Made by a program: the position numbers and the translations under genes
Shown here: positions 5,343-59,636 of the stretch, in pieces
How positions within the stretch are numbered: position 1 is the stretch's first letter
Layout of the letters: each line of letters begins with the position of its first letter
The notes under the pieces: generated by a model
Seen by the model: the letters and a program-made list of their open reading frames with translations, nothing else
What the model was told of the DNA's origin: nothing
Database searches by the model: none
NCBI GenBank assembly: GCA_014871385.1
Contig: CM026424.1
Span: 5,943,320-6,007,319, forward strand
Reading direction: 5' to 3'
DNA: 64,000 bases
From: Ceratodon purpureus
Lineage: Eukaryota; Streptophyta; Bryopsida; Pseudoditrichales; Ditrichaceae

Positions 5343-6155
5343 AACTTAAGAAAAACTAACTACTTGCACTAGTACCGAATCAAATTTCAACGGTTGAATC
5401 TATACCATTTGTGAGATTATAACGTTTAAAGTTTACTATTTTTATTTTTTTTGCTTTGTGCGTAAGGCATACTCTAAATGGTGCCAATGGAGACTTGCTG
5501 ATTGTTACTCCAAACATTTTGCTCATATTTTTTTCTCTATATAGGTAACTAAGTTAAGCACCTCCATGCAAAATTTTAGAGTCTCATCACGCTTTTTTGG
5601 CGTTTATGCAAATTACTGTCTAGAAGAAGGTACAAAAACCACAATATGGTAAAACTTAAATAACGTCAAATATTTTTTGTTTTTAAAAAAAGTGAACTGT
5701 TGAAGGTTGCGTCTATGAGTTTTTAAATTATTGGAAAAACAAAATTTGAAAAATTCCTAAATGTTGAATTTTGACAAATTTTCAAAGAAACAATTGTAAA
5801 ATTACCGAAAACTGTGAAGATTGTTTTTGTAATTTCTTGAGGTTGCCCTTATAAAATTGGTAAGTTTTTTGACATACTCCACTTTGGACTTTGAGTAGTG
5901 GATTGATTATGAAAACATTTCCAAAATAAACAATCAAAAAACATAATTTAAAATTGCCCATTTTAGACTTGAAGTCTAAAATTTCTAGATGAAGGTTCTA
6001 AAAGTGAAATTTGGCTTTAAAAATTTCACCACATTCATCTTGCAGTGTAGGGAGGTTCTAGTAAAATTCTTAGGCAAAAATATTACTTTAAATCCCTTCA
6101 TTTAGGCTGCTTAAAACAGTTGAGAGTCATTTTGGATTTGCAGAACCTTTAGGGG
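5343..6155. mobile_element. TTAA element A (left end lost)
   Basis: The right end is GAACCTTTAGGGG followed by TTAA at 6156-6159. The body is the same family as the element at 31271-32198 in inverted orientation: for example, the segment around 5420-5510 matches the complement of about 31925-32010, including AAATGGTGCCAATGGAGACT. Similarity stops near 5345, just at the position of the conserved GATC motif, so about 115 bp of the left end are missing. There is no coding potential. Confidence 0.75.
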
Positions 6156-6159
6156 TTAA

Positions 6160-7281
6160 GAATAATTTTATTGTTGAATTTTTTATTATTGCTATAGTAG
6201 TGCTTTTAGGCTTTGATGTCAAAAAAGTTAACTTTGTAAAAACATTTGATCATGGAAAATCATTTATTCTTATAGGTACTAAAGTTAGATTTACAATCTT
6301 AAATTTTAAGGAAGATGATATATCGTTTGGAAGATCATAATATTTAAAGACAAGTCATACAATCATGTCCAAAATCACAAAAGATTTGAAAATAGGTGGC
6401 TTGTTTCTTTGGAGGTTAATGTAGACTTCAATGCTACTTGATTGGAACACATCTTTCAATGCATGCATTTTGGATTCCAATATAAGCATCTTAGGTGGCT
6501 TATTCAATTTCTAAAAGAATATGATGAATTTACAAATATTCTTAGTATATAACAAGTCTACTACAAGATTGTAGAGTTGAGATTTCATAAATCTCACTTC
6601 TATTCACACTAATGGCACTTCATAAGCAACTATGTGCGTTGAAGCGAAGAAATTATTGACATTGATGGATTCTTAGACTTTTTTCAACCATATTTGAGTA
6701 TTTGATTCCAATGTGTTGAATCCATCAACATCTAGTTACCCACTTTTTATGACCATTTGACTCCAATTTATTTTAACCATTTTGTTGTGTTACAATAACA
6801 AAGACACTTGATTCATTGTAGCCGCTTAAAGTGGACCGGAGTTCATTCTATACAATAAACCTTGCCTTTGTCATCCTCCTCCTTTCATCCCCTTCCATGA
6901 TTCTAACTTTTAAGAGGCTTCCAACCCATTTTTAGTAATTTTGATATTTTTAATGGAACCAAAGACCCCAAATAATTTAGGATGATCTACTTGATTAATT
7001 TAGGTTTATTATTTTTTTTCTTTTTTCTTGTTTTATCTTTTTTTTTTAATCAACAAAATAATTACACGGTGGTTTTTGCCCCTTCCAATGGTTGCCCCGA
7101 TTGGGAGCCTTCTCATTAAAACAAGGACGAGGTTTATCGTGAGGGGAGTTCATTGTTGTTCTTGTTCTTCCTGCAATGTGATACAGTTCTTACATCTGGG
7201 CTACCAGGATCGACAGGAATACGTCTGTAAAATGCATTTTAGGAAAGGGCACCCGTGCTCCAGAAAACCAATGTTTGAAGC
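6160..7281. other. no gene seen; AT-rich spacer
   Basis: Frequent stops occur in all frames. The small ORF at 7028-7351 crosses a poly-T retroposon tail and is not credible. I see no repeat structure. Confidence 0.4.
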
Positions 7282-7452
7282 AGGACCAGGTTTTTTTTTT
7301 TTTTTTTTGGGAACAAGGATGTTAGCACTTCAATTAATCTTGAAAAAGTAACAACCTGCAAACCGAGCAGGAAACCTGCTGACGAGGAAATTTTTTTGTA
7401 TTTTGAGTACCTAATAATCAACCAGAACAACTACCAAAAGGACCAGGTTTTT
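7282..7452 (-). mobile_element. short retroposon with 14-bp target duplication
   Basis: AGGACCAGGTTTTT occurs at 7282-7295 and again at 7439-7452. The first copy runs into a long T tract, which is the poly-A tail of an insert read on the minus strand. The insert between the copies is about 143 bp. On the minus strand it ends CATCCTTGTTCCC before the A tail, which suits the 3' end of a LINE or a SINE mobilised by one. A 14-bp duplication plus an A tail is the mark of target-primed reverse transcription. Confidence 0.75.
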
Positions 7453-9455: not shown

Positions 9456-9459
9456 TTAA

Positions 9460-9684
9460 TCCCTAAAATACCACAAAACCTAAAGTGGGTTGCAAAAACT
9501 TCAACAAGTTACCACAGTTAGGATTTTTAATTATTTTTGACAAGATTTTTTTAGTAAACATGATAAATTATCTATGGGGTTGAAATTTCAGCTTTTAAAA
9601 ATTAAAAAAAAACAGGGATTTTTTTGGAAATTTTCATCATTTTCAAAGTGAGAATTGGCAAAAACATGCCTGAAATTTTAGGGG
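9460..9684. mobile_element. mini TTAA element B, about 225 bp
   Basis: The left end is TTAA (9456-9459) followed by TCCCTAAAAT. The right end is ATTTTAGGGG followed by TTGA (9685-9688), a one-base variant of TTAA. The ends match the TIR of the larger TTAA elements, but the interior is very short and lacks the conserved subterminal motif pair. It could be a deletion derivative or a chance match of short ends. Confidence 0.5.
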
Positions 9685-9688
9685 TTGA

Positions 9689-20326: not shown

Positions 20327-20416
20327 GTGATACTTGGATGATATTAATGTGATACTTAGGTGATATTTGGATGATACTAATGTGATACTTGGGTGATACT
20401 AATGTGGTGCTTAGGT
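20327..20416. repeat. degenerate tandem repeat of GTGATACTTGGATGATACTA type
   Basis: Imperfect units made of GTGATACTT plus a variable linker recur about five times. It is AT-rich and non-coding. Confidence 0.65.
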
Positions 20417-20811
20417 AAGATTTAGGTTTTGAACCAGAAAATTTTCTAAACCTCCAAAATCAAATTGGTAATTTGACACTTTCGTTCAGCTAACTTACAA
20501 CTAACAACCGATCTCCTCAGTGCAAGTTCATCCACCACTGACATTCAAAATTGCTAATATGCTGAGTTTGAGTAAGAGCCTGTTTAACAATCATCAGAGA
20601 GTGACATGCATGAGAGTGACATGCATGAAGGCTGCCACATCCATTGTACTGGAATTTTTCGAGCAGGACATGATCTCTAATACTGTAGTACGCAACAAAT
20701 TTGCCTTGGGGCCTTGAAGTATTACTGCAAATGGTACAACCCTGCAACAAATCTAGGTACCAACATGCACACACCATGATAAACTGGGAAAGGACATCCC
20801 ATGTCACATAA

Positions 20812-20930: not shown

Positions 20931-21051
20931 TTTACAATACAATATTGAAGCATCATTCACTATTTCACAATTCAAAAGATTTAGTCACAATTGCTGATGC
21001 CCTGTGAACGCATTTGTTGGGCCTACGAAAGTGAGGAAGTAACATATTTAA

Positions 21052-21889
21052 CCCCGATCGCGGTCGATTTTGGTTCGGTCAGGCTCTCAGTCACTAAATA
21101 TAAATTGTATCAATTTGATTTTTTTTTTTGTTGATTGTGGAATTCTTCCAACAAGACCATTCATGTTTCAAAATTCCTTATACTTTAAGAGATATTTGCA
21201 GTCAAATTTTTGAGAACACTATTGGGCATGCTGAAATCTGCCCAAGACTGCAGTATATGCTCATTTATCCTCGAAATCTGCCCAAAACTAATTAGACCAC
21301 AGAAACTTCAAAAATTCATCAAAAATCAAAATTTTATTTTTTTTCGAGATTTTTTTTCCCCACATGTAATACAATTTGAAGGCATGATCTCACCACTTGG
21401 ATTTTCAATCCAACATTTGTCCATATGCTTTTCTTACTATCAAAGACCGGCCTTTGTATTTGAATTTCAGCATACCTCTATGTCAAAATTGAAGCATTTC
21501 ATTAGATTTTATAGATCGTATGAAGGAAAAAATTGCATGGAAATATCCTAACCCACCTAGGAATAAGAATTTGAAGAGCCTCACACCAAATTTTCTTTTG
21601 AAATAAATTTTTGGCTCACAAAGCACTTCCGACCCATTTTGCAACACGAAAAAATAAAAAAAATAAAAAAAAATAAAAACCATTTTTTTCAATTTTAAAC
21701 ATAATGATTTCACAAACGGTAAGAAGTTTGAATCTAATATTTGAATAACATATACATGTACAAGTAAGGTACTAGATCCTACGGTTATTTTCCCTCAAAA
21801 TACATCAAAACTTAAAAATTTACACCTTTTATTGAAAGAGGCCAATTTTGAGAGCTTTTGGTAGTTTTGAGGCCTTCTGACTTTAGGGA
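21052..21889. mobile_element. TTAA element C, 838 bp
   Basis: Flanked by TTAA at 21048-21051 and 21890-21893. The left end is CCCCGATCGCGG and the right end is CTTTAGGGA. Conserved motif 1 starts at 21691 and motif 2 (AGATCCTACGGTT) has its GATC at 21775, 84 bp later and 114 bp from the right end. The left half matches the right half of the element at 37706-38538 in inverted orientation (ACAAGACCATTCATG and AGAGATATTTGCAGTC). CTGCCCA motifs lie near 21240 and 21280. There is no coding capacity. Confidence 0.85.
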
Positions 21890-21934
21890 TTAAGATAAGT
21901 TGCAATGACTTTAGGGATTAAGATAAGTTGCAAT
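21879..21934. repeat. 28-bp exact tandem duplication across the end of element C
   Basis: The unit at 21879-21906 (ending ...AAGTTGCAAT) is repeated exactly at 21907-21934. It contains the element's last 11 bp, the TTAA and 13 bp of flank, so the right terminus is present twice. Confidence 0.9.
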
Positions 21935-24810: not shown

Positions 24811-25165
24811 GGTATGCTTGTATTGATAATGACTCTTCTTTTTTTGGCTTAGTTTTGGGATGAATGCATGCATGTTTGATCCTTGTCACCTAAGCCGTAT
24901 ACGGTTGGTATGAAGATTTCTTTGCATGTATAAAAGAAAGGTAGAGAACATTGGGTTGAATTATGATCCAAGTCAGATTTTTGAAATTTAGTTATCAATG
25001 CATTGTCTTTATTTTGAATGAGGTGTAGATGTCATGCTTGCTAGAAAAGCCACTTTGGTTTTGACTTGGTATATATATGTTTAAGCCTTTTGAATTCAGA
25101 TGTATATACAATTGTTTTGTTATTATTAATTTATACACATTTGGAAAAGAAGATAAGAATGTTAA

Positions 25166-27236
25166 ACTCTTAAATGCCTACATTGATTTTAGACCAACAC
25201 CTCTTTGTGAAGCAAGCAATTTTTTCAATTTTGTGACATTCTTTGACAATTTCGACCGTAGGATCTTATAGCCAACTTTTTGAAATATTATTTTTCAAAA
25301 TTTGAGATGCATAAACCAAATCGATTACTAGATCTAAATGTTTGAAATTCAAGTACAAGTCCTTTCAATTCCTCAAAAAAATGCAATCTTATTTGCAATG
25401 AATTTTCAAAAAATATCCTCTACAGTTTGATTATGGAAAACTTCATATTCTATAAGAGAAATAACTTGAAAATATACAAAAAAAATTCCAAAAATGAAAC
25501 CTTGGTTTTCATCTCTAAAATACAAGTAAATTAGAAGAAGTTGTAGAATAAATGAAAAAACTAAATTGCTAATTAGGTCCACATAAAAGTAGATAATGTC
25601 AATTCCAATGGTAAAAATGATTTATCATGTAACCAAAATCATTTATAATTTTTATTTTCAAAAAATTGATAAAATTGAATCTAAAATAAGATGTTAATCT
25701 CCGAAGGCCTACGAGACCACATTGTGGTCGTAGCACTTCTAGGCAGGCTATTCTAAGGTCTCATAATTTTTTTATTTTTTAAAAAATTTACTACGCATAC
25801 CTTTCAAACAGTAGCTTTCAAATGGCACAGTTTTCAAAGCATTTGGAGTTACTATGGAAATATTATGAATTTTAGAAGAATATTCTCTAAATTCGGGCAG
25901 CCATTAACTAATTCAAATTACCATTTTTTGCCCAAGTTGCCCATCATTTACGAAGGCAGAATGTGATAAGAGTAAATTTCAAAGGTTAGGCACTTACAAA
26001 ACAATGGGTCCAATATTTTTTCATCCATGTACATTGATAATATTTTTCATCCAATAGATTTTTTCATCTAACTAATTGTTTCCAACTAAAGAGGTTGCTG
26101 AAATTTTCCATCCAAATGATAGTTATATCATCTATACTCTGTTTGCATCCAAATTTTTTTTTATCCATCTAAAATAATACATCTAATCTTCATCTTTATC
26201 CAAACTAAATGAGTTTCATCTAATATTTATGATGTGGTAGGGGTCCATCCACATGACCCCTTGTTATCAAACTGCCCTTCAAAATTAAAGAGAAATATAC
26301 AATCTACACTTCAAAACAATCTAGAAATTTGAGATATACTCTGATTACTTTGCAATGTTTTGTGGTTCTTTGTCTTATTGACATGAACATATCTACCACT
26401 GAGATTTCCAATTCAACATGTTTAAATTACCCTTTTCATAGTTTTAATTTTTAAGAATTTAAGGCATTTTCAGCACTCATTTTTTATAAAATCAAGGGTG
26501 TTTTCCCCTTCTCAAGCCTATATGGGGCTCAAACTTGGTGAGCATATATCTCACTTCCACACCTATAGGAATAGATAACCCTCTACAGATCAAATGTATT
26601 TACAATGTATACTTTTTTGGCATCAAAACTTAGCTATAGTGTGAGGGCTATGTCACATGTTTTTTTTGAAGTGAGTTCAAACCTTATAATCTCGCAATTT
26701 GTACAGTGGAATGAGTTCAAATTTGGTATACAGAATTTTAGACAAGGTAGATACAAGATCCTACAGTTACATATTTGATGTTTGATCACAAAAATCAGTA
26801 GGTTGCTACTAGTAGGGGTCTGTTTATTGCTGTTTTGGCTCCAAAAACACCAATGGCCTTTAGAGGTTGAAGTTATTTTTCATGAAAAGTTCAAGGAAGC
26901 CCCCATATAACATGATTTATTATATCTCTTACCTCACTTATTGGAATGGATTGAATCAAAACTTCATATGTAAATATGAATTACTACATGATAATGATAT
27001 TTTTTTACATAATTTTAAAAATATTTATAAACTAATTTATAGCTACATGCATTGAAATTTAAAACCTAAACCATTGAGAACATTTACATTACATACTTGA
27101 ATTTTATGAAACAAAGCTTGGTAACGAAGCAAAGACCTTTACATACAAAATCTCAAAAATCTATGAAATTCTGACACCATGGGAGCCTGATCAAAATAGC
27201 TTGCAACCACATTTTGGTTGCCTAAGCATTTAGAGA
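25166..27236. mobile_element. TTAA element D, interrupted by element E
   Basis: Flanked by TTAA at 25162-25165 and 27237-27240. The two outer parts (25166-25693 and 26871-27236) match the complement of the element at 56318-57240: left end CTCTTAAATGCC versus CCCCTAAATGCC, and right end CCACATTTTGGTTGCCTAAG versus the complement of the 56318 start. Motif 2 (ACCGTAGGATC) is at about 25255-25265 and motif 1 lies 84 bp further in. The element is split at an internal TTAA by element E. It is non-coding. Confidence 0.8.
25698..26866. mobile_element. TTAA element E, nested in element D, about 1.17 kb
   Basis: Flanked by TTAA at 25694-25697 and TTGA (a mutated copy) at 26867-26870. The ends are CTCCGAAGGCC and, on the complement, CTCTAAAGGCC. 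Motif 1 starts at 26673 and the motif 2 GATC is at 26757, 84 bp apart and 109 bp from the right end. Removing the insert restores the sequence found uninterrupted near 56680-56700 in the paralogous element, so the insertion is precise. Confidence 0.78.
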
Positions 27237-27387
27237 TTAATCTAATTTGTGATTCCATTTACAATTTGAATAAAATTGTAGAAGATGAATTGGCCTATGA
27301 AACAATTATTTATTTATGAAAGTACTTATTTAAGAGAAAAATAAATAACAACTTTGATGATGTCACTATGTGAAAGATGGTATAGTC

Positions 27388-29152: not shown

Positions 29153-29156
29153 TTAA

Positions 29157-30075
29157 TCCTAATTATCTTTAAAACCCAAAATGGGTTTTTGCAATTTTGG
29201 GCAGCCTAGATGGGGACGTTAAAAGTAATACTTTTTTTCAAGATTTTACTCGGTGCTCCCTTTACAGTAAGTTCTATGTAGTAAAAAAATTTGAAGCCAA
29301 ATTCCAATTTTAGAACCTTCATCTAGAAATTTTAGGTTTCGAGTCCAAAATGGGCAATCTAAAATTAGGTCTTTTAAAAAAAATGAAATATGTTCATAAC
29401 CAAATCACTATTCAAATTCCATAGTGACCCAAGTCAAAAAGTTTGTCAATTTTACAAGGGCAGACTCCAAAACTTACAAAGACAAGCTTCAAAGTTTTTA
29501 GTAATTTTTTAGTATTTCCTGTAAAAATTTGTCAAAATTCGAGATTTTTGAATTTTTCAAAATTTTTTTTCTTGAAAATCACAAATTTATAAAGGTACCT
29601 ACTCAGTGTTCACTTTTTTCTTAGCTTACATATTGTTTTAGTAATGCATGTTTTACTATTTTGTCAATTTTAAACCTTCTTACAGAAAATAATTTGCATG
29701 AAGGTCTAAAAAGCGTTTTGAGTTTCTAAATTTTTGCATGAGCATACCTAACCTAGTTTAGCCAGATGGAAAAAATATGACCAAAATGTTTGAGGTAACA
29801 ATCTTCAAGTCTTCCTTTGCATTGTGGAAGCAATGCCTCTCGAGCAATGCCCAAAAAAACTTCTGCACAAAATTTGAATGTTACAGTCTTAAAAACAACA
29901 ATCATCCAACGGTCGCTTTTTGGAACCAGAACTACAAATAGACTTAGATTCAAGATCTTACGGTTGAAAGTCTTTAAAAAGTTTTTAAAAACATTTTACA
30001 CTCTTGGAAGTCCATAGAGGTAAAAAATTGCAGTTTTGAGGCTTCAAGCTTCCAAAAACACAAGGAAGTTAGGGG
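29157..30075. mobile_element. TTAA element F, 919 bp
   Basis: Flanked by TTAA at 29153-29156 and 30076-30079. The left end is degenerate (TCCTAATTATC) but continues CCAAAATGGG...TTTTGGGCAGCCTA, as in element G. The right end is GTTAGGGG. Motif 1 starts near 29871 and the motif 2 GATC is at 29954, 83 bp apart (one base less than in most copies). It is non-coding; the ORF at 29817-30017 is a by-product of the conserved motifs. Confidence 0.82.
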
Positions 30076-30079
30076 TTAA

Positions 30080-31158: not shown

Positions 31159-32300
31159 CATGGTTACCGGAGTCCAGAGAATATGCTGTAATTGTTCCAA
31201 GAATCTTTCATATACATACAAATTTTTTGTACTTCTAAAGTATTTTGAATATTCTAATGATGGTTATTAACCCCTAAAGGTTCTGGAAATCCAAAATGGC
31301 TCTCGGCTGTTTCGGGCAGCCTAAATGAAGGGTTTAAAAGTAATATTTTTGCCTAAGAATTTTACTAGATGCTCATTATACAGCAAGGTGTATGTAGTAA
31401 AAATTTCGACGCCAAATTTCACTTTTAGAACCTTCATCTAGGAATTTTAGGTTTCAAGTCCAAAACGGGCAATTTAAAATTAGGTTTTTTTAGAATTTTT
31501 TTTTTGGAAATGTGTTCATAACCGATTCACTACTCAAAATCCAAAGTGGCCTATGTCAAAAAGCTTACCAATTTTAGAAGGGCAGCCTCCAAATATCACA
31601 GAAACAACCTTCTCAGTTTTTGGTAATTTTACAATTTTTTCTTTCAAAATTTGTCAAAATTTGAGATTTAGGAATTTTTCAAATTTGTTTTTTCCAATAA
31701 TTCAAAAAATCATGGACATAACTTTTAACCGTTCACTTTTTTAAAAAACCAAAAGCATTTCATGTCATTTAGGTTTTACCATATTGTGGTTTTTGCACCT
31801 TCTTGTGGAAATTAATTTGCATGAAGGCCAAAAAACTGTAATGAGACTCTAAAATTTTGCATCGAGGTGCTCAACTTAGTTACCTACATGGAAAAAAATA
31901 TGAGCAAAATGTTTGAGGTAACAATAATCAAGTCTCCATTGGCACCATTTAGAGTATGCCTTTCCGCAAAGCCAAAAAAAAAAAAACAGTAAACTTTGAA
32001 CGTTATAATCTCAAAAATGGTAAAGATCCAACTGTTGAAATTTAACATGGTATTAGTGCAGGTAGTTAGGTTTAAGATCTTACGGTTGGATGTATCAAAA
32101 AGTTAAAAAATTAAAAATCATACTTCTACTTCTACAAGGTCGTCAAAAATCACAGTTTTTGGTTTTGGAGGTCCAAAAACGGCTTGAACCTTTAGGAGTT
32201 AACAAGTACGTAAATAATTTGTAAGTATGTATAAATCTAGCCAGAAGTACGTAGCCAAAATTTGCAAATATAGGAATATTCTTGTACTCCGGTAACCTTG
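31159..32300. mobile_element. hAT-like MITE split by TTAA element G
   Basis: The 15-bp TIR is CATGGTTACCGGAGT on the left (31159) and CAAGGTTACCGGAGT on the complement of the right end (ending 32300). It is flanked by near-identical 8-bp duplications GTATGAAC (31151-31158) and GTATGAAT (32301-32308). An 8-bp duplication with a TIR starting CA fits the hAT superfamily. Without the nested element it would be about 214 bp long and non-coding. Confidence 0.72.
31271..32198. mobile_element. TTAA element G, 928 bp, nested in the hAT-like MITE
   Basis: Flanked by TTAA at 31267-31270 and 32199-32202. The ends CCCCTAAAGGTTC and GAACCTTTAGGAG are near-perfect inverted repeats. TTTCGGGCAGCCTAAATG lies about 45 bp from the left end. 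Motif 1 starts at 31992 and the motif 2 GATC at 32076, 84 bp apart and 122 bp from the right end. Same family as elements A and F. It is non-coding. Confidence 0.9.
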
Positions 32301-32644
32301 GTATGAATCCATTATAGTCAACATGTATAATATCTTGTAAACTTCTATTTAGGAGGTAAATAAACCGTCAATATGGAACTATAATTTTTAGCACATGCAT
32401 CTAGTTGAAATATAGTTCACTTATTTCTATTTCTACTTATACATTGTTGTTTTGGGATCATAGTACTTTAAATTGAATGGTCTAATAATATCAGTTATCA
32501 ATTCTTTTGGTTTAAAAATGAGCCTTTGAAAATACACACAAAATTCAATACAACTTTAAAAACTTAAGTTCATATTTTGAATTATATTCTCCAAGATTCT
32601 CCCACCCTTGATTGTTTTTTAAATAACTGTCATTGAACTCTTAA

Positions 32645-33502
32645 CCCCTAAGGTTCTAAGGGTATTTTTCATCAAAACTGCCTCAAAACAACCCCTCTTC
32701 AAAGCACGGTGGATTTTCAAACTTGGGATCTTAATTAGTACATCTAACCTTAAGATCTTGTAGCTAACTTATATTTCTACATGTCCACCAAATCTCACAC
32801 ACTCATTCCTCACCAATTGCAAGATCGTAACATTCAAAGTTGAAAAACAAGTTTTTTTTCCCTGCGCAAAAAGGGGATAGCAGAGTTTTGAAGGCCCAAC
32901 AAACCATTTTTTAAAGTAAATATGGAATGGATCTCTCCATATTCTTGTTCCTAAGTGAGTTAGGTACATGTCCAAACAATACCATATTCAAAAAAGTTGT
33001 GGAAGGTTGCCAAAAAAATCATTTTCTGCTGCGGGTATACTGAAATTCACAAACAAAGGCCGTTTTTTGACAATAAAAATAGCATATGAAAAAAAATTGG
33101 ATTAGAAATCCAAACGGTGGGAACATGCTCTACTGCCTTTTCTATATGTAGAAATTTTTATTTTTGAAAAATATCAAAATCTCAATTTTTGGTGGAATTT
33201 CAAAGTTTTTCTTTTGGGCAGATTTTGGTAATTTTCGGCAGTTTTGGGCAGTTTTGGGCAGAATTTGTTGCATTCACTGTCATTCTCATTGGCTAATTGA
33301 CTGCCCTTGGAGGAGCTTTTGTGGTTCAGAGGTGAATAACTTTTCACTCCCACATCGGGATTGAGAATAAAAAATACCGACACGAAGCTCTCACCAAGGC
33401 CTACTTTCATTAAATTTTTCATAAAATCTGAGTTCAAATTGCATTCGTAGGTACATGCCCAAACTCCAAAAAAGCCCCACTTTGCCAAATTGTCCTTTAG
33501 GG
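32645..33502. mobile_element. TTAA element H, 858 bp
   Basis: Flanked by TTAA at 32641-32644 and 33503-33506. The left end is CCCCTAAGGTTC and the right end CCTTTAGG. The motif pair is at the left end, read on the minus strand: motif 2 ends at 32757 and motif 1 at 32841, 84 bp apart. A run of GGGCAG motifs lies at 33217-33262. Closely related to element N. It is non-coding; the minus-strand ORF at 32769-32975 is shared with N but has no recognisable function. Confidence 0.88.
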
Positions 33503-33506
33503 TTAA

Positions 33507-34682
33507 AGGATCCTATCCTCCTTTAGATTTGCACCAGATTTCTCTAATTCTAAAAACTCATTATAAAATATAAGTAAACAAAAAAATCCTATGTTGATGT
33601 TGAGATTGAAGTTGTAGGTCATGAAATTTAGATTACATCTCTATGGTTGTTTCTATAGTTACTATAAGCAATGTATTTTTTTGTTATTTTTGAAAACTAG
33701 AAGTCAAAATATTTTTTAGATTTAACAACAAAAAGAATCAACAATCTATTAATGTAATGGATTGAAATGTGACACTTTGATAGTTGTGATTTTTTTACAT
33801 TTCACAAATGTCTATTTTTATGAATATTTTTTTAAGAGCGTATTTGGAGATCAAATTTTCGGATTTTTTCATAAAACACTTGAACATAAAAATGAAGTAT
33901 AAAAAATTCACTTACCATTCCATGTATACAAAGTCAATTAACTATATAAAAACTATTACTTTTTGGAGATCGGATGAATGCCATCTAGAAAATATATGCC
34001 ACTTCCTTGTTGTCAAGCGTTGAAATTTTGGATAGCCGCATAAGGTTGGATTACCTAAAAGCGGCCCTTACCCAAAAGCGCTTTGTCCTAATTCTCTTGA
34101 TTGTGAAAGGACAGATGTACCTCATTTGTATATATCGCAAATAGGCGAAAACTTACTTAGCAGGTTGGAATTTTGTATAAAATTCAGAAATGCGAATTAC
34201 ATGTTGCAAATTTTTTCAATCCTAGTGAAAACCTATTTCAAATGTGATCATATTTTTGTTTTGAATTTAATACTACTAAAAATAGGTCATGTCGCTTAAG
34301 TTGGTGCTTTTAGGATAGTCAACCTTAGTAGAGGTTAACCAGCCGAAAGGCTTTGTCGAAATTTTGCGACACTGGCATCGTACAAGGTTAACCAGCACAA
34401 GAAGGGTCCAGAAGTAGTGCTACCTTAGTCTGAAGTGGGTCTGATCTAGAAAGTGCAGCCTCCTGATGAAGAGCAGCTTTGGCCAAGGAAAGAAGGTCAG
34501 GCTGCCAGCAAACCAATAGTGACGTCCTCGTCTAACATAATAATAATTAAAAAAAAGGTAGGTCATGAGACCTACATTTTCCGAAATGGTCATTTGATAT
34601 CATTCCTGTCAGTATCTGATTTGTAAATTGATGTTCATCTTTGGCTTTTTGGCATTTGAAGGTGCTGTGGAAGGGCCCTGGG
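33507..34682. other. no gene seen; spacer
   Basis: AT-rich to about 34010, then more mixed sequence with a repeated GGTTAACCAGC (near 34335 and 34386). No coding sequence is recognised. Confidence 0.4.
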
Positions 34683-39115: not shown

Positions 39116-40047
39116 CCTTTAACGTTCCTTGACAACGTTTCACCAAAAAATGCTCCAAAAATGCCATTTCTAATGTAAAAAAACTAATGACTAAACAATC
39201 ATTATTTTCAAAATATAACCGTAAGATCTTCAACAACACTATTTTAGTGGATAGCTCAAAAATTTCATCATAATTGATTGTAGAGATTAGAAGATTATAG
39301 TAATTGAAATTTATATATAAATTTTTTTGACACGGATTTAAATAGGTCCACTCACTCTAACTTCTTTGTTTTTTTTTTTTTTTTTGGTTTTTTGCATTAT
39401 GAATTTTGGGGGTTTTTAGTGCATAACAAAAATGACTAAGTTTGCTAATTGTATAAAAAAGTTAAGCACAAAACACAAGTGTAGCATGTTGAAACAATAT
39501 TTTTATTAAGTTGAATACAAAAGAATGATAATTCATATTTTTTTCCTAGAAATTCCATTATTTCATAAAGTCCCAATCCAAACCGTCATAGTAAAGATTG
39601 ATGTCCCTCCTTTAAGTGAAAAAAAGAAAAAAAACTAAAAAAAACAAATTTTCTAACTTTTATAAGGGAAAGAATAAGTTTTTTTGGTACATTGCCCGAA
39701 ACGGTGAGAAAACTTTGATATTTTGTGGAGTGAACATTTTGTAGTGAAAGATGTTCTTTTTTGGAAAACCTCAAAGATGACGATATAAAATATTTATAGG
39801 AAACATATCAGAGGAAATAGATGTATTTAACGTGGCTGCTCAAATTGCCTATTGAATTCAAAATTTCACTTCCTATACCATAAGTATTTTTTTTAAATGT
39901 CTAATTGAAAAAAATTTAAAAATTCCTCAAAGTCTTTGTTACGGCAAACATTCACAAAAAGTTTCAAAAAATCCCGATTTAAATTGAAGACATAAGTACA
40001 TGCCGAAACTCTTAAAAAGCCCAATTTTGCCAAATTGTCCTTAGGAG
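39116..40047. mobile_element. TTAA element K, 932 bp
   Basis: The left flank is TTAG (39112-39115, altered); the right flank is TTAA (40048-40051). The left end is degenerate but continues GTTCCTTGACAACGTTTCAC, as in element O. The right end is TGTCCTTAGGAG. Motif 2 (AACCGTAAGATC) ends at 39228 and motif 1 lies 83 bp further. Same family as O (55273-56196). It is non-coding. Confidence 0.82.
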
Positions 40048-40051
40048 TTAA

Positions 40052-47764: not shown

Positions 47765-47768
47765 TTAA

Positions 47769-48620
47769 CCCCTAAAAGTTCTGAGGGTATTTTTCATCAA
47801 AACTGCCTCAAAAGAGCCCCTCTTCAAAGCACGGTGGATTTTGCAAACTTGGGATCTTTTTTAGTACACCTAACCGTAAGATCTTGTAGCTAACTTCTAC
47901 GTCTACATGTCCACCAAATCTCACACACTCATTCTTCACCAATTGCAAGATCGTAACGTTTAAAGTAGAAAAACAAGTTTTTTTTCCCTGCGAAAAAAGG
48001 GGACAGCAAAGTTTTGAAGGCCCAAAAAACCATTTTTTTGCATTATGGATTTTGGGGGTTTTGATGCACGTCAAAGAATATTGAGTTAGCTAATTGTACT
48101 GAGAATTTTATATTCAAAAAAGTTGTGGAAAGTTGCCAAAAATATCATTTTCCGCTAGGGGGTATACTGAAATTCACAAACAAAGGCCGTTTTTGGACAA
48201 TAAAAATAGCATATGAAAAAAAATTGGATTAAAAATCCGAACGGTGGGAACATGCTCTACTGCCTTCTCTATACATGGAAATTTTTATTTTTGAAAAATA
48301 TAAAAATCTCAATTTTTGGTGGAATTTCAAAGTTTCGTCTTTGGGCAGATTTTGGCAGATTTGGGCAGTTTTGGGCAGAATTTGCTGCATTCATAGTAGC
48401 TTAGAAAAATGCAGCAGCAGCCCAACGAGCAGCGTTTGACAATTAAACCTTCATAACTTTTGATCCCGATGTCGAAATTGAAAAATTAAAATACCCACAC
48501 GAAGATCTCTGAACGGCCCACCTTCAATAAAAATTTCAGAAAATTCTGATATAAATTGCATTCATAGGTACATGCCCAAATTCCAAAAAAGCCCAAATGT
48601 GGCAAATTCTTCCATAGGGG
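47769..48620. mobile_element. TTAA element N, 852 bp, mosaic
   Basis: Flanked by TTAA at 47765-47768 and 48621-48624. The ends are CCCCTAAAAGTTC and CCATAGGGG. Motif 2 ends at 47883 and motif 1 at 47967, 84 bp apart. Most of it follows element H closely, including the GGGCAG run at about 48340-48380. About 48040-48105 instead matches the middle of elements O and K (CATTATGGATTTTGGGGGTT). Confidence 0.88.
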
Positions 48621-48760
48621 TTAATGGAATGAAGGCCATAATTTTTCACATGCTAGTACACTATCAACAACCTTGAACAAAAACAGGAGCAAAGTGTTAA
48701 CAAACATTGAATAATAAGAACAGCAGGGAACAATAAGATTCAAAGTCACAAGATTTTTCC

Positions 48761-48900: not shown

Positions 48901-49774
48901 TATCCGGTGAGTTCTAAAGATCGTGGGGTGCTTGTAAGGAGAAAATACAATCAAAAGCACGGATTGGCTCCATTTAAAACATTACCGCGGATGGACGTAG
49001 CCTAGAACTCATTCTAGCTACGATGATATTTATTCATCTTTTGACACGCTTCCCATTCCAACCAGATGAAAAACTTCAGCACGGAATTGCAATGTTTCGT
49101 CAAAACCAAAAGGGCTGCTTTCCACCCAAACTTGCAACACACCAAAAAAAATTAAAAAATTAAAAAAATAATAAAAAAAGCGCAGATAAAGTGGAGAGAG
49201 GGAAACACAGTCAGATCCACAATGCCTTGCACATGGACCCAGTGCCCCATCAAAAATCAAATGAACGTTCACAGCCAGTGTGCCCAGGAAAAAGGGGAAC
49301 CACACCCATTCAGGCGCAACTTATTCCCAAGCAGAGAACCATCCCCCCCAAAAAAGGGCGCACTGAGCCGCGCAGCCTGCACCAGAATTATGTATGCAGG
49401 TGGGTGGGGACCCTTTTGGTGGCATCTAGCATTTGGCAAGTTCCGGATGCCCCCCACTGCCCCAGTATCATAATAAAGTAACTAGTCCACACAGTCCAAC
49501 CAGTCTCCCCCTAGTAGCTCGAAATAGCAACCAACCCAACCAAATCCTCTCCGGAAAACCCAACAATAACAATACCACAAATATAGCAACCCTCGCTCCG
49601 CCCTCCCGCCCCAACACTAGCCCATGCCTACCAAAAGACGCCTACACCACGAGGGTAGGGTGGGGGCGGACTGGATGACCACGCCCCACTCCACTCCAAA
49701 GCATCTGTGCCATGCTCATGCTCATGCTCATGCTCACCACTGCACTGCGACAATTCCTCCCGACCTACCGCGCG
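48901..49774. other. no gene seen; becomes GC-rich from about 49190
   Basis: Overlapping ORFs on both strands reflect low stop density in GC-rich DNA. A CATGCT hexamer repeat (about four copies) lies at 49711-49736. This is probably the distal upstream region of AP2/ERF gene 2. Confidence 0.4.
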
Positions 49775-50322
49775 ACGCGGCGTTCTCCTCCCGCTCCCCC
49801 GCGCCATTCCCATACCCCTCCCCCATTCCCACCATACAGTAGTACATACCCCCTGAGCCCCGCTCCCAAACCCGCCACCGTACCCCCCACTACCAACCCC
49901 TTATCTACCTCCACCAGATCACATCCCCCAAAATGTATGCAACTCCTAGACACTACCCGTCATAAGGTGCAGTAACGGTTTTCGGTCCTCATCATCTCCT
50001 GTGAGTTTACATCTAGAAAACCACGAGTCTAGGATATCCAAAGAGAGCGGAGCTCTCTAGGGAGGGCATAGATATATGGTTTCTAGATGTAAACTCACGG
50101 GAGCTGATGAGGACCGAAAACCGTTACTGCACCTTATGACGGGTAGTGTCTAGGATTGGCGTACATTTTGGGGGATGTGATCTGGTGGAGGTAGATAAGG
50201 GGTTGGTAGTGGGGGGTACGATGGCGGGTTTGGGAGCGGGGCTCGGGGGGGTATGTACTATGGTGGGAATGGGAGGGGTATGGCGGGAATGGGGGAGGGG
50301 GAGGGGGAGGGGCGCGTGGTCT
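49775..50322. repeat. large GC-rich inverted repeat, arms about 250 bp, upstream of AP2/ERF gene 2
   Basis: The left arm (about 49775-50022) and right arm (about 50076-50322) are reverse complements with few differences, centred near 50049. The inner arm CAGTAACGGTTTTCGGTCCT and GAGTTTACATCTAGAA are exact in the other arm. The outer arm is C/G-rich (ACTACCAACCCCTTATCTAC and the CCCCGCTCCCAAACCCGCCA stretch). The 53-base spacer contains a small hairpin AGAGAGC-GGA-GCTCTCT (50042-50058). A transcript would fold into a very long hairpin. It may be a foldback element, a MULE-like MITE with long TIRs or a local inverted duplication. The same reading frames are open in both arms, but nothing suggests a real protein. 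Confidence 0.9.
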
Positions 50323-52217: not shown

Positions 52218-53739
52218 ATGCCTGAAATACTGTCAAATCGCAACTCCAAGATATGTGATCGCCTTGAACGTCCCTGGTGTGGGGAGTGCGCGAAGATTGG
52301 CAGCACAGACTGTATCGACCATGGTGGACATCTGTCAGAAGACACAAGTGTGCTTGGGAAGCGCCTGGGACATGACGCCTTCGGGGACTTTCGTCGAGAG
52401 TTTGAGTTTGGGGGGATGTGGGATAAAAACCCCTTGAAGCCTCAAACGAAACGTCCTAACGCGGCCTCTTCGAACCCATTCTCAGATAGAGAAGCCTTTC
52501 TCAGACTACCCACTCCAGAGTTGATTGTTAGGCCTGCATCTTCCGGCCTTGCAATTCCGCCTCCGACGAAGTTTGCGATCAAGCCAATTCCATCTGTTCC
52601 TATTAAGCCAACAGCATCCGTGCCTGCGAATGTCCCAGCAGTGGCAGTTCCCAGCACCGAATCTGCAGTGGTTGACAATGATCCCAGCACACCCAGCGAC
52701 CTTGCCAGGTACATTCGTCGTTTATTTCATGCACACTCCCACTTTTTGTTTTGTGCTTCGTGTGTCCTTGCTAATAGACATTAGTAACGAAGCGTTTGTT
52801 GGTTGCAAGATGTCATTTTTCTTGTAGTGGTTAAGAGTTATGTTGGGGTGTCTTCTGCCGCATCTTCTAGATTTTACCCAGTAAGTCTGACCTTGTCGCA
52901 TTGTCTGGTTTTGCAGAGAGCAAGGGCCAGTTGATCCAGATACTGATGAAAATGGTTGCAAGGAGGGCGGAGTACGGTTTCGGGAGAATCTGGGGAAATT
53001 TGTGGTAGAGTACAGGCCTCCTCGTTTCAAATGGAAGCTGTGGATGGGCACTTATGCTACTGTAGAAGAGGGTCGGCGAGCCTGCGACTGCGCAAGGTTT
53101 TATGCTGGCCAAGACAAGGGGGGGTTTTACTTTAAGGACTCCCCTGCTTTGTTCGGGGATCTGGGGCCTCTAAACCGACCTTTCTCCGTGGTCAGCAAGG
53201 ACGTTAAAGACAAAGCTTTCAACGTTGAGCTCAAGAAACGTGCCAAGCAGGTCATCAAAAAAGTCCTCGACGCACAGAGGGTCAAACAGTCAGTTGATGT
53301 TACTCGTCCAACTGTAAAGAAGCCGTTGCCAGACGCCATTGTGCAGGGTCTTCAAGTTCTCACTGCTAGAACAAACGGACGCAGTGACCGTCTCTCCAGC
53401 TCCAGCCAAGAGAGCCTGCCCAACTCCGCTGTAGTCGACTCTGGGCATGAAGAGAACGAGCTTGCGGAATCCGTTCAACATGAAGTTGCAAGTGGAGCCC
53501 TAGATGCCTGTGTTCCTCACACAAATCTGGACCACTACACAAATCTTGGTCCCTTGTCAGAAACGTCTGCCTTCGACCCAGAGTTTGCTCCGACTTCAGT
53601 GCTTGTTTCCAGCTTCATGTTAACTTCTGACCATCACGACCTCCCAGGGTGCCTTCAGAGCTCTTTAGATTTTGCTGAAGATTTCGATGATTATGAACTT
53701 TCATATGTTAAGTTATGGAACCACGATGAACTTCCTTGA
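52218..53739 (+). CDS. divergent AP2/ERF-domain protein, gene 2 (join 52218-52708, 52917-53739)
   Basis: Predicted nuclear DNA-binding protein, paralogue of gene 1. ATG 52218 has a good context (GTCACCATGCC). Exon 1 ends at GCCAG|GTACAT (donor 52709) and exon 2 begins after TTTTGCAG (acceptor 52916). The 208-bp intron is phase 2 through an Arg codon, as in gene 1. Length 437 residues. A Cys-rich start (CDRLERPWCGEC) is followed by a Pro/Val/Ala-rich linker. The AP2-like domain covers about residues 182-240: GVRFRENLGKFVVEYRPPR, then KLWMGTY, EEGRRACDCARFYAG and FYFKDSP. The EIR motif is EYR, the AAxAYD helix is RRACDCA, and the first Trp is Phe, so the fold seems kept but DNA specificity may differ. 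The C-terminus is acidic (DFAEDFDDYELSYVKLW). It sits 35 kb from gene 1 in the same orientation. Confidence 0.82.
52709..52916 (+). other. intron of AP2/ERF gene 2
   Basis: GT at 52709-52710 and AG at 52915-52916, 208 bp, phase 2. Removing it joins two long ORFs in frame just before the AP2 domain. Confidence 0.8.
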
Positions 53740-55170: not shown

Positions 55171-55272
55171 GTACTCCCTCTGTTTCACAGAAAAACCATG
55201 GTTTTTGTATAAACTTTGTACCAAAATAAACCATGGTTTCAACAGCAACATGAAAATGTAGACTTTGTTTAA

Positions 55273-56196
55273 CCCCTAAAGTTCCTTGACTATGTTTCAC
55301 CAAAAAACGCTCCAAAATTGCCATTTCCAATGTAAAAAGCATGAATGACTAAAAAAATATATTGTTTCTAATTATAACCGTAATATCTTCAACTAGAATA
55401 TTGTAATAGACATCTCAAATTTCTTTAATGTAATCGACCGTAGAGATTAGAAGATTATAGCAATTGAACTTTGAAAACAAACTTTTTTGATAAGATTTTT
55501 GACTAGGTTGACACACTCTAACTTTTTTTTTTCTTCGGTTTTTGCATTATGGATTTTGGGGGTTTTGATGCACGTCAAAGAAGACTAAGTTAGCTAATTG
55601 TATTAAAAAAATTAACACTCAAAAGTCAAGTGTAGCATGTTGAAAACATTATTTTTATTAAGTTGAATACACAAGAATGCTAAATCTTATTTCTTTCCTA
55701 CAAATTCCATTATTTAATAAAGTCCTAATCCAAACGGTCAAAGTAAAGATTTATGTCCATCCTTTCACTGAAAAAAAGAAAAAACCTAAAATAATATTTT
55801 TTCTAACTTTTATGAAGGAAAGAAGAAGTTTTTTGGTACACTGCCCGAAACGGTGAGAAAACTTTGATATTTTGTGGAGTGAACATTATGCACTCAAAGT
55901 CATTTTTTAAAAAAAAAACCTCAAAGATGAAATCATGAAGTATTTATAGAAATATTTTAAGAGGTAATTGGTGTATTTAGCATGGCTGCACGAATTGCCC
56001 ATCGAACAGCTTTTTCCACTTTGGGTACCATAACTATTTTTATAAATGTTCAATGGAAAAAAAATTAGATTCCCTCAAAGTTCTTGTTATGGCCTACATT
56101 CACAAAAAGTTTAAAGATTTTTTGACTTCAATTGAAGTCATAGGTACATGCCCGAATTTTAAAAAAGCCCATTCTAGGACAATTGTCCTTTAGGGA
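55273..56196. mobile_element. TTAA element O, 924 bp, nested in the Stowaway-like MITE
   Basis: Flanked by TTAA at 55269-55272 and 56197-56200. The ends are CCCCTAAAGTTCC and CCTTTAGGGA. Motif 2 (AACCGTAATATC) ends at 55387 and motif 1 at 55471, 84 bp apart and 114 bp from the left end. Same family as K. The right end TTGTCCTTTAGGG is shared with H. It is non-coding. Confidence 0.9.
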
Positions 56197-56317
56197 TTAA
56201 TGGGCTTTGGCACTTAATGGGCCCAACTGCAGTTGAATTTGTGGTTACTGTGAAACCCATTGCTTCTCACAACCCAATCACATTCCATATATTTAGAAAG
56301 CGCATCACTGTTCTTAA

Positions 56318-57240
56318 CCCCTAAACTCTCAGGCAACCAAAATGTGGTCGCCGGCTATTTTGGGCAGGGTCCCACAGTGTCAAAAATAACTTTCAGGTTT
56401 TGAGATTTTGTGTGTGGATTCTCTAGGTCATTACGTACGTGTCAAGCTTTGATTCATAAGATTTGGTTATGTAATGCAAAAGTTATGCATGGTTGAAGGT
56501 AAAAAATCTCAACGCGGGCAGCCACAAAAAATTTCAATTTTTTTTTTTAAAAATAATTAAAAATATCATCATTTTGTAGAGATTCATATTTAGATAGGAT
56601 GCTTTGATTCAGTCCATTCCAACAAGTGAGGTAAAAGATATGACAAGTCATGTTATGCGGGCAGTTTGGTCAAGTCTTCATGAAAAAAAACTTTGAGAGT
56701 TCATTTTGAATGCAATTTTGACAATTTTTCAAAAATAAAAATTGGAAAAGTTTTTTGTTATGTATTACATCATTTTTACCGTTGAAATTGACGTTATCCA
56801 CTTCTACGTGAATGTAATTAGCAATTTAGTTTTTCCTTGTATTCTACATTGTATTTAGATTTACATATCTTTTGAAGATGAAAATCTAGGTTTTTTCTTC
56901 TGGTATTTTTTGTGTAGATTCCCAAGTCATTTTTTTATTAGAATATGGAATTGCCCATTTCAAATTTGTAAAGCGTATTTTTTGAAAATTCATTGAAAGT
57001 GAAATTTCAGCTTTTTGAAGGATTGAAAAGAACTTGTTTCTTAACTTTGAACATTACGATCTTGCAATTGGTATCATATTTTTCTCTAAAATTTTGGAAA
57101 AGAATGTCTTAATAAGTTAGCTATAAGATCCTACGGTTGAAATTGCAAAAGAATGTTATAAAATTGGAAAAACTAACTTGCTTCACAAAGGAGTGTTGAA
57201 GGGCAGTTTTTGATGTGAATTCATGGTGGGCATTTAGGGG
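56318..57240. mobile_element. TTAA element P, 923 bp, nested in the Stowaway-like MITE
   Basis: Flanked by TTAA at 56314-56317 and 57241-57244. The ends are CCCCTAAACTCTC and GCATTTAGGGG. Motif 1 starts at 57043 and the motif 2 GATC at 57127, 84 bp apart and 113 bp from the right end. It is the uninterrupted relative of D and shows what D looked like before E inserted. It is non-coding. Confidence 0.9.
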
Positions 57241-57292
57241 TTAATCTTGCACTAAAAAGGAAACCACTGTTTTTGGTGAAACAGAGGGAGTA

Positions 57293-58540
57293 TGCAGATT
57301 CTGGTGATCCAATTCAAATATGGAATTGCCCTTCGTATTATATACATAATTTATAATGTCTTTACTTTCTTTTGCAACTGTTGCAGATATCTGTTTTTTG
57401 ATACTGAGCCCTTAGTGTGAGTGTCCAGGGAGCTTTCAGAGGGAATCAGTAATTATCCTATATTTTCTGTAAACAATTGGTCTTAACTACCAATCCATCT
57501 AGTCACTGTCCAAGTATTGTATAGGTATTACTCAAATATCATCCAAGTATCACATATTTTAATTTGATTTTAACCAAAAGCTTTTAATATCAACCAATTT
57601 TTTGTAAATCATTCAACCAATCTGTAAACAACTCCCAGTTATCCCAGTTCATTGCTTTGTATGATGAATTTTGTGAGAAAATATCTTGTATTCTGGAAAG
57701 ATCTACATGCTTCATTCCAAGTGTTTATGAGCACTACAATTCAAATCGTAATTTCCTAGTTCTTTCAGATTGTCTGCTGTAATGAGAGCCATATTGATAT
57801 GTAGTAGAGATGGCCGTTACTTAGACTTGTACCAAATATCAGCATGAAAACAGTGAGTGGAACCAAGACACCTAAGTTACTTGTGCATCACAGTGGCAGC
57901 TTGGGGAAGCTTTCAAGAAGATCTACAAAATGAAATTTCTATCTAGTTAGGTGGCATCGAATATGTATGGAATATGCATGGAATATGTTTTGCGAAAGCA
58001 CGTGTGTGGAAAGAAGTGACAAAGAAAGTTCAGGCACTGAATAGGTACTTCGTGACTCTCTGTAAAGTGTGCGATTCTATCATGGCAAATGGAGTTGGCG
58101 AATGCCATGCTGCCAAGGCAATGGAATCATGTGACATAATAGACACAGTGCAGGTACAATATGTTGGAACGGTGGGACCTCTGATGTTTGCCAACCAATG
58201 GCAAGGAATGCACATTACCATATTAATAATATGCCTTTGAACGGGTCATGATATCTTGCAAAGAGGTACATCATAAACTGTTTTTGAAGTTGAGCTGATA
58301 CTATCTCTACAGTGGCTGCCTCAGAATGAGTTCATGTTGAATAGGATGAGTCAAGTTTACGCTCAAAGTCAAGGAAAGTGGATGTTGATGCAACAAATTC
58401 ACTTCAGCCCATCTGATTTTCTCCTGTGCCCAACATGAGAATTGATGGAGATCTGGGATATGCAGAATTGATGTGTCTAAAACAATCAAATGCTAATTAC
58501 TTGTTGAGGGATGCACTTATTGCTAACTTGCTCAATACAT
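57293..58540. other. no gene seen; spacer
   Basis: An 88-codon ORF at 57974-58240 has ordinary composition but no family I recognise and no gene signals nearby. The remainder is non-coding. Confidence 0.4.
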
Positions 58541-58544
58541 TTAA

Positions 58545-59636
58545 CCCCTAAAGAATATGGCCATAAAATCCCAAATTCTGCCTCAATTCTGCCCTGTTTT
58601 AGTTCAAAGTAGAATTATGCAAATTTAAATGTATTTAGGAGAATCTAACCGTAGGATCTATTACCTAACTTGTACATGTATGTGTACACAAAATTTTAGA
58701 CTGTAACTCTTCACCGTTTCGAAGATCATAAGGTTTGAACTTGAGTGAAAAGTTTTTTTTGGTCCTGTCCGGCAGGGACAGCCGGACTTCGGAGAGTAAA
58801 ACAGTCCATTTTTGAAGATCGCATGGGTGGAGGCTCTTCAGTTTTGGATTCTAAAGTGAGTTGGGAGTATGCCCAAAAAAGTTGAAGACAATAGAACACA
58901 CAGAAGCATTGGAAAACCACATTTCTAGTGACGGGAGTCAAATGAAATGCATATACACTAGGTCTTTTTCCACACTACAAATGCCTAAGAAGATCATCAA
59001 TTTTTGGGAATCCGAACGGTGTATACATGCATTTGTATGGAAAAGAAATTGTAGAGGAAAAAAATCCAAAAAATAATTAAATCCAAAATAGATATGAATT
59101 TTACAGCATATATTGTGGTTTAAAAGGAGAAAATGGTGAAGGGAAAATGGGTGATGAAGGTGACCCAATCACTGTTGATCTGTCTTGACAGTTTTTATAA
59201 AACTTGAAACTTTGACTGAATATATCTCAATATCCGTATGGTCAAAGTTTACAAAACTTGGTACGTAGACTAATTGGATGGCTCTAAATAAGATCCTACG
59301 GTTGGATTTTTCAAAATCAAATTTTAAAAAACCATTATGAAACAATTTCAGAAAGGATCATTTGGAAGTCACTATAGACTTTCACTTCACAGATTTGGTA
59401 CACCACTTCCATCGGCCACAAACCTGCCCGAGCTGCCCTGAATTGAATTTTGATCTTTAAACACCAATTAATTCTTAACTACGGGCCCGATGGAAGTAAA
59501 ATTTGGTCTTGCCAGAAAGATATGACAATTTCCCATGCTGTGCCAAAGTTACAGCCACATCCGATAAAATTTGACTCATAGGGAGCCTGACCGGACCCTG
59601 AATCATACCAAAACTGTTGAGTTGATACTTTAGGGG
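58545..59636. mobile_element. TTAA element Q, 1092 bp
   Basis: Flanked by TTAA at 58541-58544 and 59637-59640. The ends are CCCCTAAAGAATATGG and ATACTTTAGGGG. Motif 2 ends at 58658 and motif 1 at 58742, 84 bp apart and 113 bp from the left end. It is a close inverted copy of element L, about 13 kb away, including GAGCTGCCCTGAATTGAATT and GACTCATAGGGAGCCTGACC near the right end. A 71-codon ORF (58861-59076) corresponds to one in L. Confidence 0.92.

What the first reader, a model, noticed from the sequence alone, without database searches (positions are those of the whole stretch)
5343..59636. Dense population of TTAA-flanked, CCCCTAAA-ended elements: a piggyBac-like system in a plant genome
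At least 16 elements (A to Q, with M a second TIR type) have ends TTAA-CCCCTAAA and TTTAGGGG-TTAA, mostly 0.8-1.2 kb, in several sequence families. A TTAA target with TIRs starting CCC is the known signature of piggyBac; Kolobok also uses TTAA. Plant MITEs normally use TA (Stowaway), TWA (Tourist), 8-bp (hAT) or 9-bp (MULE) targets, so a TTAA-specific family at this copy number is unexpected. No transposase is present here, so an autonomous partner must exist or have existed elsewhere.
Basis: partly seen in the sequence, partly recalled or inferred. Interest (0 to 1): 0.88.

Follow-up and report, generated by a model that had tools for sequence, protein, structure and literature searches.

The report
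piggyBac transposon population in a moss
The repeated TTAA-flanked elements are short, defective relatives of piggyBac "jumping genes", and the same moss genome holds full-length copies with uninterrupted transposase genes, so a transposon family known best from animals has a large, probably recently mobile population in a land plant.

Summary
Observation and interpretation both hold. The window has 16 elements with TTAA-CCCCTAAA...TTTAGGGG-TTAA-type ends (3 exact at both ends; others diverged, one truncated, one nested). The 362-Mb genome has 9,407 exact ends against 128 for the reversed pattern. Paired ends led to two elements of 5.3 and 5.9 kb with identical ends and uninterrupted ORFs that match the piggyBac transposase profile (PF13843, E about 1e-80) and solved piggyBac structures; the catalytic aspartates and cysteine-rich domain are kept. 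Of 998 candidate regions 116 were scored; all match, 93 without internal stop. Two copies on different chromosomes are 99.1% identical between their TTAA sites. Four window elements match full-length ones at both ends, so these are piggyBac MITEs. The host is a moss, probably Ceratodon purpureus. New here: a 12-bp motif, GATCYTACGGTT, about 105 or 115 bp inside one end only, behind the transposase gene: 2,303 genome matches in one orientation, 3 in the other. Of 2,510 motif-bearing ends, 2,303 (92%) abut TTAA. piggyBac has been listed in land plants before; our paper searches listed none on a native moss population. Transposition was not tested.

The parts
5339..6159 (.). piggyBac MITE E1, left end lost; right end TTTAGGGGTTAA exact
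   Evidence: 85% to 32090-31264 inverted; left end absent; the lost end is the one that carries the motif in its relative E6
9456..9688 (.). 233-bp element E2, ends TTAATCCCTAAA / TTTAGGGGTTGA
   Evidence: no subterminal motif and no match to a full-length element
21048..21893 (+). MITE E3; motif about 21775-21786 near right end
   Evidence: 80% to 37703-38415 inverted
25162..27240 (-). MITE E4, family of 56314-57244, interrupted by E4n; motif about 25254-25265 near left end
25694..26870 (+). nested MITE E4n inside E4, ends TTAATCTCCGAA / TTTAGAGGTTGA; motif about 26757-26768
   Evidence: joined flanks align without a gap to the uninterrupted homologue at 56631-56760, one 4-bp site
29153..30079 (+). 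diverged MITE E5; motif about 29954-29965
   Evidence: 73% to 31287-32104; matches full-length L028 at both ends
31267..32202 (+). MITE E6; motif about 32076-32087
   Evidence: matches full-length L028 at both ends
32641..33507 (-). MITE E7; motif about 32746-32757
   Evidence: 81% to 47765-48628; right end matches L009, L032, L010
34683..35518 (+). MITE E8; motif about 35401-35412
   Evidence: left end 79% to L032, 78% to L010
37702..38542 (-). MITE E9, left site reads CTAA; motif about 37808-37819
39119..40051 (-). MITE E10; motif about 39217-39228
   Evidence: 79% to 55269-56200; both ends match L009 and L032
45582..46663 (+). MITE E11, exact ends; motif about 46546-46557
   Evidence: 90% to 58541-59640 inverted; right end matches L032 and L009 weakly
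47765..48624 (-). MITE E12; motif about 47872-47883
   Evidence: right end matches L009, L032, L010
55269..56200 (-). MITE E13; motif about 55376-55387
   Evidence: both ends match full-length L009, L032, L010
56314..57244 (+). MITE E14, exact ends; motif about 57127-57138; supplies the uninterrupted homologue of the E4n site
58541..59640 (-). MITE E15, exact ends; motif about 58647-58658
20341..20520 (+). repeat related to the flanks of the full-length element L010: paralogous empty site, a single CTAA at about 20446

Best explanation
The elements are non-autonomous (MITE-type) members of the piggyBac superfamily in a moss genome. Full-length elements with the same ends encode a piggyBac transposase. 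Inferred from established piggyBac biology: the transposase binds the ends, cuts at TTAA through hairpin intermediates and inserts the element into another TTAA, giving 4-bp duplications; MITEs that keep the ends and subterminal regions are moved in trans. A conserved outward-pointing motif, GATCYTACGGTT, about 105 or 115 bp inside the 3' end marks that end, and I infer that it is a recognition or assembly site for the transposase. Shown: ends, TTAA, transposase homology, shared ends, motif, near-identical full-length copies. Inferred: current activity, mobilisation in trans, function of the motif.
For: ORFs of 1,023 and 1,050 codons (stop to stop) between perfect ends; PF13843; match to 6x67 and 9c0f. 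Three catalytic aspartates (656, 743, 860 of L010) and the Cys/His residues of the C-terminal domain are invariant in 7 of 7 moss sequences, two pairs of which are near-identical. Of 998 candidate regions the tool scored 116; all 116 match at E 4.2e-73 or better, 93 without internal stop, 54 of these with an open frame of at least 900 codons. L030 and L031 on different chromosomes are 99.08% identical from the left TTAA to two bases past the right TTAA, and no flank match was found. E5 and E6 match L028, and E10 and E13 match L009 and L032, at both ends. TTAA follows 2,303 of 2,510 motif-bearing ends. Two paralogous empty sites have one 4-bp site and no gap at the junction. Motif: one end of 14 of 16 window elements against a mean of 0.2 of 16 in random segments; behind the gene in 4 of 4 CCCC-type full-length elements compared; 2,303 outward against 3 inward matches genome-wide.
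Against: No excision or new insertion was observed. The empty sites are paralogous, and their single 4-bp sites read CTAA and TCAA. Six window MITEs (E7, E8, E11, E12, E14, E15) match a full-length element at one end only, some weakly (E11, E14 at 1e-8 to 7e-7); E1 has only a subterminal match; E2, E3, E4, E4n and E9 gave none at E 1e-6 (six full-length elements compared). Window elements are 10% or more diverged from each other, so the window shows older insertions. L030/L031 have CCCTTAAA ends and lack the motif; L029 has no clean right end and L027 was cut by the stretch fetched. The 116 scored domains are the best of 998, so the share without stops is biased upward.
Confidence: 0.95

Rival explanations
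1. The elements belong to Kolobok, which also targets TTAA, and only resemble piggyBac in their tips.
For: Kolobok's TTAA target (recalled, no call).
Against: Full-length elements with the same ends and subterminal regions encode PF13843 transposases. No Kolobok profile was searched for in the genome.
Confidence: 0.02
2. TA-target (pogo/mariner) or TWA-target (Harbinger) MITEs whose outer bases happen to make TTAA.
For: The palindrome TTAA cannot by itself tell a 2-bp from a 4-bp duplication. A pogo-type DDE_1 fragment lies at 2401-2820.
Against: All four bases are intact at 2,303 of 2,510 motif-bearing ends; full-length copies encode piggyBac. Near the DDE_1 fragment the only end-like match is at 2318 with two mismatches, a level at which chance gives about 10 per window.
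Confidence: 0.02
3. The population is extinct: the transposases are dead, and the intact frames are recent relics or domesticated genes.
For: Window MITEs are diverged. In the one family searched, 2 of 40 matches (one of them the query itself) are 99% or more and the rest 87% or less.
Against: 93 of 116 scored domains lack stops; full-length copies 99% identical on different chromosomes with ends intact. Domestication does not explain intact ends.
Confidence: 0.2
4. The subterminal motif is not a transposase site but a leftover of common descent or a promoter/terminator signal of the element.
For: Families share ancestry; the motif lies near one end only and is absent from L030/L031.
Against: It is kept where neighbouring sequence has diverged widely, at two spacings about 10 bp apart (spans of 117-118 bp in 57 and 126-128 bp in 36 of the first 100 places, all on C1), and in MITEs without a gene.
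Confidence: 0.35

Closest known systems
piggyBac of Trichoplusia ni (PDB 6x67, 6x68)
   Same: Transposase domain, three aspartates, C-terminal cysteine-rich domain, TTAA target, short ends beginning CCC
   Different: Moss ORFs are 923-1,073 codons stop to stop with a long, low-complexity N-terminal part and a probable 5' intron (true start unknown); elements 3.9-6.1 kb against 2,472 bp (PMC10140906 passage); one-sided GATCYTACGGTT motif
piggyBat of Myotis lucifugus (PDB 9c0f)
   Same: Transposase alignment E 2.7e-27; subterminal sites affect transposition (PMC11707139, passages)
   Different: Its GCGGGA motifs are on both ends; the moss motif was seen at one end
Daphnia Pokey with its MITEs mPok (PMC4912750, search listing only)
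   Same: piggyBac family with autonomous and MITE members
   Different: Animal host; inserts at a specific rDNA site as well as elsewhere
PiggyBac annotated in C-fern (PMC6890710, passage)
   Same: Land plant
   Different: 1,230 matches, 122,417 bp in all; no elements described in the passage seen

Membership tests
piggyBac superfamily | DDE_Tnp_1_7 transposase | tested here: met
   PF13843 E 4.4e-80 and 1.4e-80; 116 of 116 scored genome matches over the cut-off, 998 candidates
piggyBac superfamily | Three catalytic aspartates | tested here: met
   TIDE, DN and GVD regions aligned to 6x67; aspartates invariant in 7 of 7. That these are piggyBac's catalytic residues is recalled
piggyBac superfamily | C-terminal cysteine-rich domain | tested here: met
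   C958, C961, C976, C979, C985, C992, H997 invariant in 7 of 7; sequence pattern only, structure not predicted
piggyBac superfamily | TTAA target, duplicated on insertion | tested here: met
   TTAA at 2,303 of 2,510 motif-bearing ends; two paralogous empty sites with one 4-bp site, now CTAA and TCAA; allelic sites not available
piggyBac superfamily | Short terminal inverted repeats beginning CCC | tested here: met
   perfect 10-19 bp including TTAA in 7 of 9 elements printed; the other two (E6, E13) have an early mismatch
piggyBac superfamily | Footprint-free excision | not testable with these tools
   needs an excision assay or resequenced accessions
Kolobok | Kolobok transposase in elements with these ends | tested here: not met
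   L009 and L010 give PF13843 as their only Pfam family; no Kolobok profile was run on the genome
piggyBac MITE | No transposase gene, ends shared with a full-length element | tested here: met
   both ends: 4 of 16 (E5, E6, E10, E13); one end: 6 of 16 (E7, E8, E11, E12, E14, E15); subterminal only: E1; none at E 1e-6: E2, E3, E4, E4n, E9

The most novel reading that the evidence does not exclude
Mosses hold their own still-mobile piggyBac lineage, with N-terminally extended transposases and a one-sided recognition site whose two spacings differ by one DNA turn. The site tells the transposase which end is which, and the diverged MITE families of the CCCC type all depend on it.
Probability: 0.4. 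Interest if true: 0.72.

Novelty: new member of a known kind. Interest (0 to 1): 0.6.

Why it matters
piggyBac is studied and used mostly through animal elements. A land plant with at least 93 transposase domains free of stops and thousands of element ends is a native system in which to ask how piggyBac persists in plants, how its MITEs amplify and how its two ends are told apart. It could also supply a plant-derived footprint-free vector; so far the insect element has been used in rice (PMC5505980, passages). Plant repeat annotation should expect piggyBac among TTAA-flanked MITEs.

Tried and rejected
Kolobok and TA/TWA-target families were considered and set aside once full-length copies encoded piggyBac. 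The pair at C1:338974 (6,981 bp, L011) holds no long transposase ORF and is probably two unrelated ends. The 1,364-bp and 2,027-bp pairs (L013, L012) are MITEs of known window families with extra DNA inside. The 10,528-bp pair was fetched only in part (L014) and not analysed. The 4-kb loci L015-L026 were too short to show element ends. Rfam found nothing in the window. The tRNA-Gly call was not checked. The identity of a MITE family across the genome (window:31267-32202), the count of TTAACCCTTAAA and the copies of L028 were asked for and never answered, so MITE ages and the sizes of those families are unknown. No tree was built: the relatives carry no organism names. No structure was predicted. 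In one search the nested site was cut one base off and showed a one-base gap; one search repeats it correctly and is gapless. In some searches four elements (E4, E4n, E5, E10) were cut 1-4 bases off, which shifts their motif distances by as much. At most 2 mismatches were allowed for the motif in window and full-length elements; L032's copy has a mismatch to GATCY, and L009 and L028 have a second, weaker match further inside.
Full report
What is there. The window holds 16 elements bounded by TTAA-CCCCTAAA and its inverse or decayed forms of them. Exact 12-bp ends occur 12 times and ends with at most one mismatch 24 times; 30 Markov shuffles give 0 and 0.53 on average. Self-comparison shows several families, with matching pairs 65-90% alike. 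One element (E1) has lost an end and one (E4n) sits inside another (E4).

The host. The window lies in G000, 362,488,568 bases in 151 contigs. The genome has LEAFY (PF17538, E 6.5e-50; none in the tool's 14 control genomes, whose names it does not show), with aspartate in KPKMRDY and cysteine in WCQACY, which I recall as the moss-type residues. Contig C6 has 110,524,308 bases, 30% of the total; a review says that the U and V chromosomes of Ceratodon purpureus exceed 100 Mb each, about 30% of a 360-Mb genome (PMC8000587, passages). Another gives assembly sizes of 358 and 349.5 Mb for this species, neither equal to G000 (PMC13120521, passages). So a moss is well supported, and Ceratodon purpureus is probable but inferred.

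From MITEs to full-length elements. The exact end occurs 4,663 + 4,744 times against 70 + 58 for the reversed pattern. Among the first 100 places, all on C1, 32 adjacent left-right pairs lie within 12 kb: 3 of 229-249 bp, 23 of 823-1,094 bp and 6 of 1,364 to 10,528 bp. Two of these six, L009 (5,337 bp) and L010 (5,871 bp), carry uninterrupted ORFs of 1,023 and 1,050 codons that match PF13843 at E 4.4e-80 and 1.4e-80. L011 carries none, L012 and L013 are enlarged MITEs, and L014 was not analysed. Both ORFs match piggyBac (6x67) and piggyBat (9c0f).

The transposase. Seven moss ORFs share the three aspartates and the cysteine-rich domain; two pairs among them are near-identical. L009 and L010 are 71% identical over 597 residues. 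In L009, L010 and L032 the frame begins just after a similar splice-acceptor-like sequence ending in tgtag, and L010 has no ATG for 232 codons, so a 5' exon and intron are likely (inference). In public proteins the best relative is 87% identical over the whole 531-residue query, from a JGI source; the next are 55% and 51% (22 proteins in all).

How many, how old. The genome search found 998 candidates and scored 116; all 116 pass the cut-off, 93 have no internal stop, and 54 of these have a frame of 900 codons or more. These are the best-scoring ones, not a random sample. I looked for ends around 8 ORFs: both ends within one mismatch for 6 (L009, L010, L028, L030, L031, L032); L027 was cut by the stretch fetched; L029 has an exact left end but only a two-mismatch match on the right. 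L030 (C9) and L031 (C10) are 99.08% identical over 3,904 aligned bases, from the left TTAA to two bases past the right TTAA, with no flank match at E 1e-20. L027 (C1) and L028 (C5) are 99.1% identical over 4,964 bases, and L028 has exact ends 6,122 bp apart. In the family of L030, 2 of 40 matches are 99% or more, one of them the query, and the rest 87% or less. Recent movement is supported; present activity is not shown.

Link between MITEs and full-length elements. Against six full-length elements, E5 and E6 match L028 at both ends; E10 and E13 match L009 and L032 at both ends, E13 also L010. E7, E8, E11, E12, E14 and E15 match at one end only, some with further subterminal matches. E1 has only a subterminal match; E2, E3, E4, E4n and E9 gave none at E 1e-6.

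Target site. The joined flanks of L010 align to a related repeat in the window (20341-20520) without a gap at the junction; the single 4-bp site reads CTAA there. The joined flanks of the nested element align to the uninterrupted homologue without a gap; its single 4-bp site reads TCAA. Genome-wide, of 2,510 ends that carry the motif and TTTAGGGG, 2,303 are followed by exact TTAA.

The subterminal motif. GATCYTACGGTT, with at most 2 mismatches to GATCTTACGGTT, lies 105-116 bp inside the end behind the transposase gene in 4 of 4 full-length elements of the CCCC type compared (L009, L010, L028, L032), and in neither of the 2 of the CCCTTAAA type. It is near one end, outward-pointing, in 14 of 16 window elements (88-120 bp inside); random segments of the window give 0.2 of 16 on average, at most 2, in 200 draws. 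Of the two without it, E1 has lost that end and E2 is the 233-bp element. Genome-wide, exact motif plus exact end: 1,124 + 1,179 outward matches against 0 for the reversed pattern, and 1 + 2 in the inward orientation. Of the first 100, all on C1, 57 span 117-118 bp and 36 span 126-128 bp from motif to TTAA inclusive. The step of about 10 bp is one DNA turn, which suggests that the face of the helix matters; families share ancestry, so this is a lead and not a proof.

What was known. [quoted passage not shown] A 2015 survey lists PiggyBac among superfamilies found in all groups, land plants included (PMC4438587, passages). C-fern annotation counts 1,230 PiggyBac matches (PMC6890710, passage). 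Searches that paired piggyBac with moss and Physcomitrella, bryophyte, Ceratodon, and mosses listed, by title and abstract, no paper on native moss piggyBac; I saw passages of three of those papers and only the listing of the rest. The Ceratodon genome paper and a main piggyBac phylogeny are not held, so earlier notice cannot be excluded.

Verdict. The elements are piggyBac MITEs of a moss with full-length partners: a new member of a known kind, with a new one-sided motif worth testing.

Noticed in passing
window 2401-3219 minus: Two adjoining frames of a transposase; the one at 2401-2820 hits DDE_1 (PF03184, E 6.1e-15), the other (2824-3219) has no Pfam hit. Nearest end-like match at 2318 has two mismatches.
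   Followed up: partly
window 16911-17642 and 52891-53739: Two diverged AP2-domain genes (E 3.8e-6 and 1.3e-5, below the curated cut-off); 11 of the 16 elements lie between them.
   Followed up: no
window 60338-61559: Frames that look like a LINE reverse transcriptase by eye; no Pfam hit at 1e-3.
   Followed up: no
window 49787-50310, 48762-48901, 36418-36577, 4764-4897: Four palindromic (foldback) repeats, 134-524 bp, without the piggyBac ends.
   Followed up: partly
window 24022-24882: Tandem array of 150-bp units with a 31-bp sub-repeat.
   Followed up: no
G000 contig C6: By hand count 19 of the 116 scored piggyBac domains lie on C6, which is 30% of the genome; best scores only.
   Followed up: no
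L030, L031: A second subfamily with CCCTTAAA ends, shorter elements (3.9 kb) and no GATCYTACGGTT motif.
   Followed up: partly
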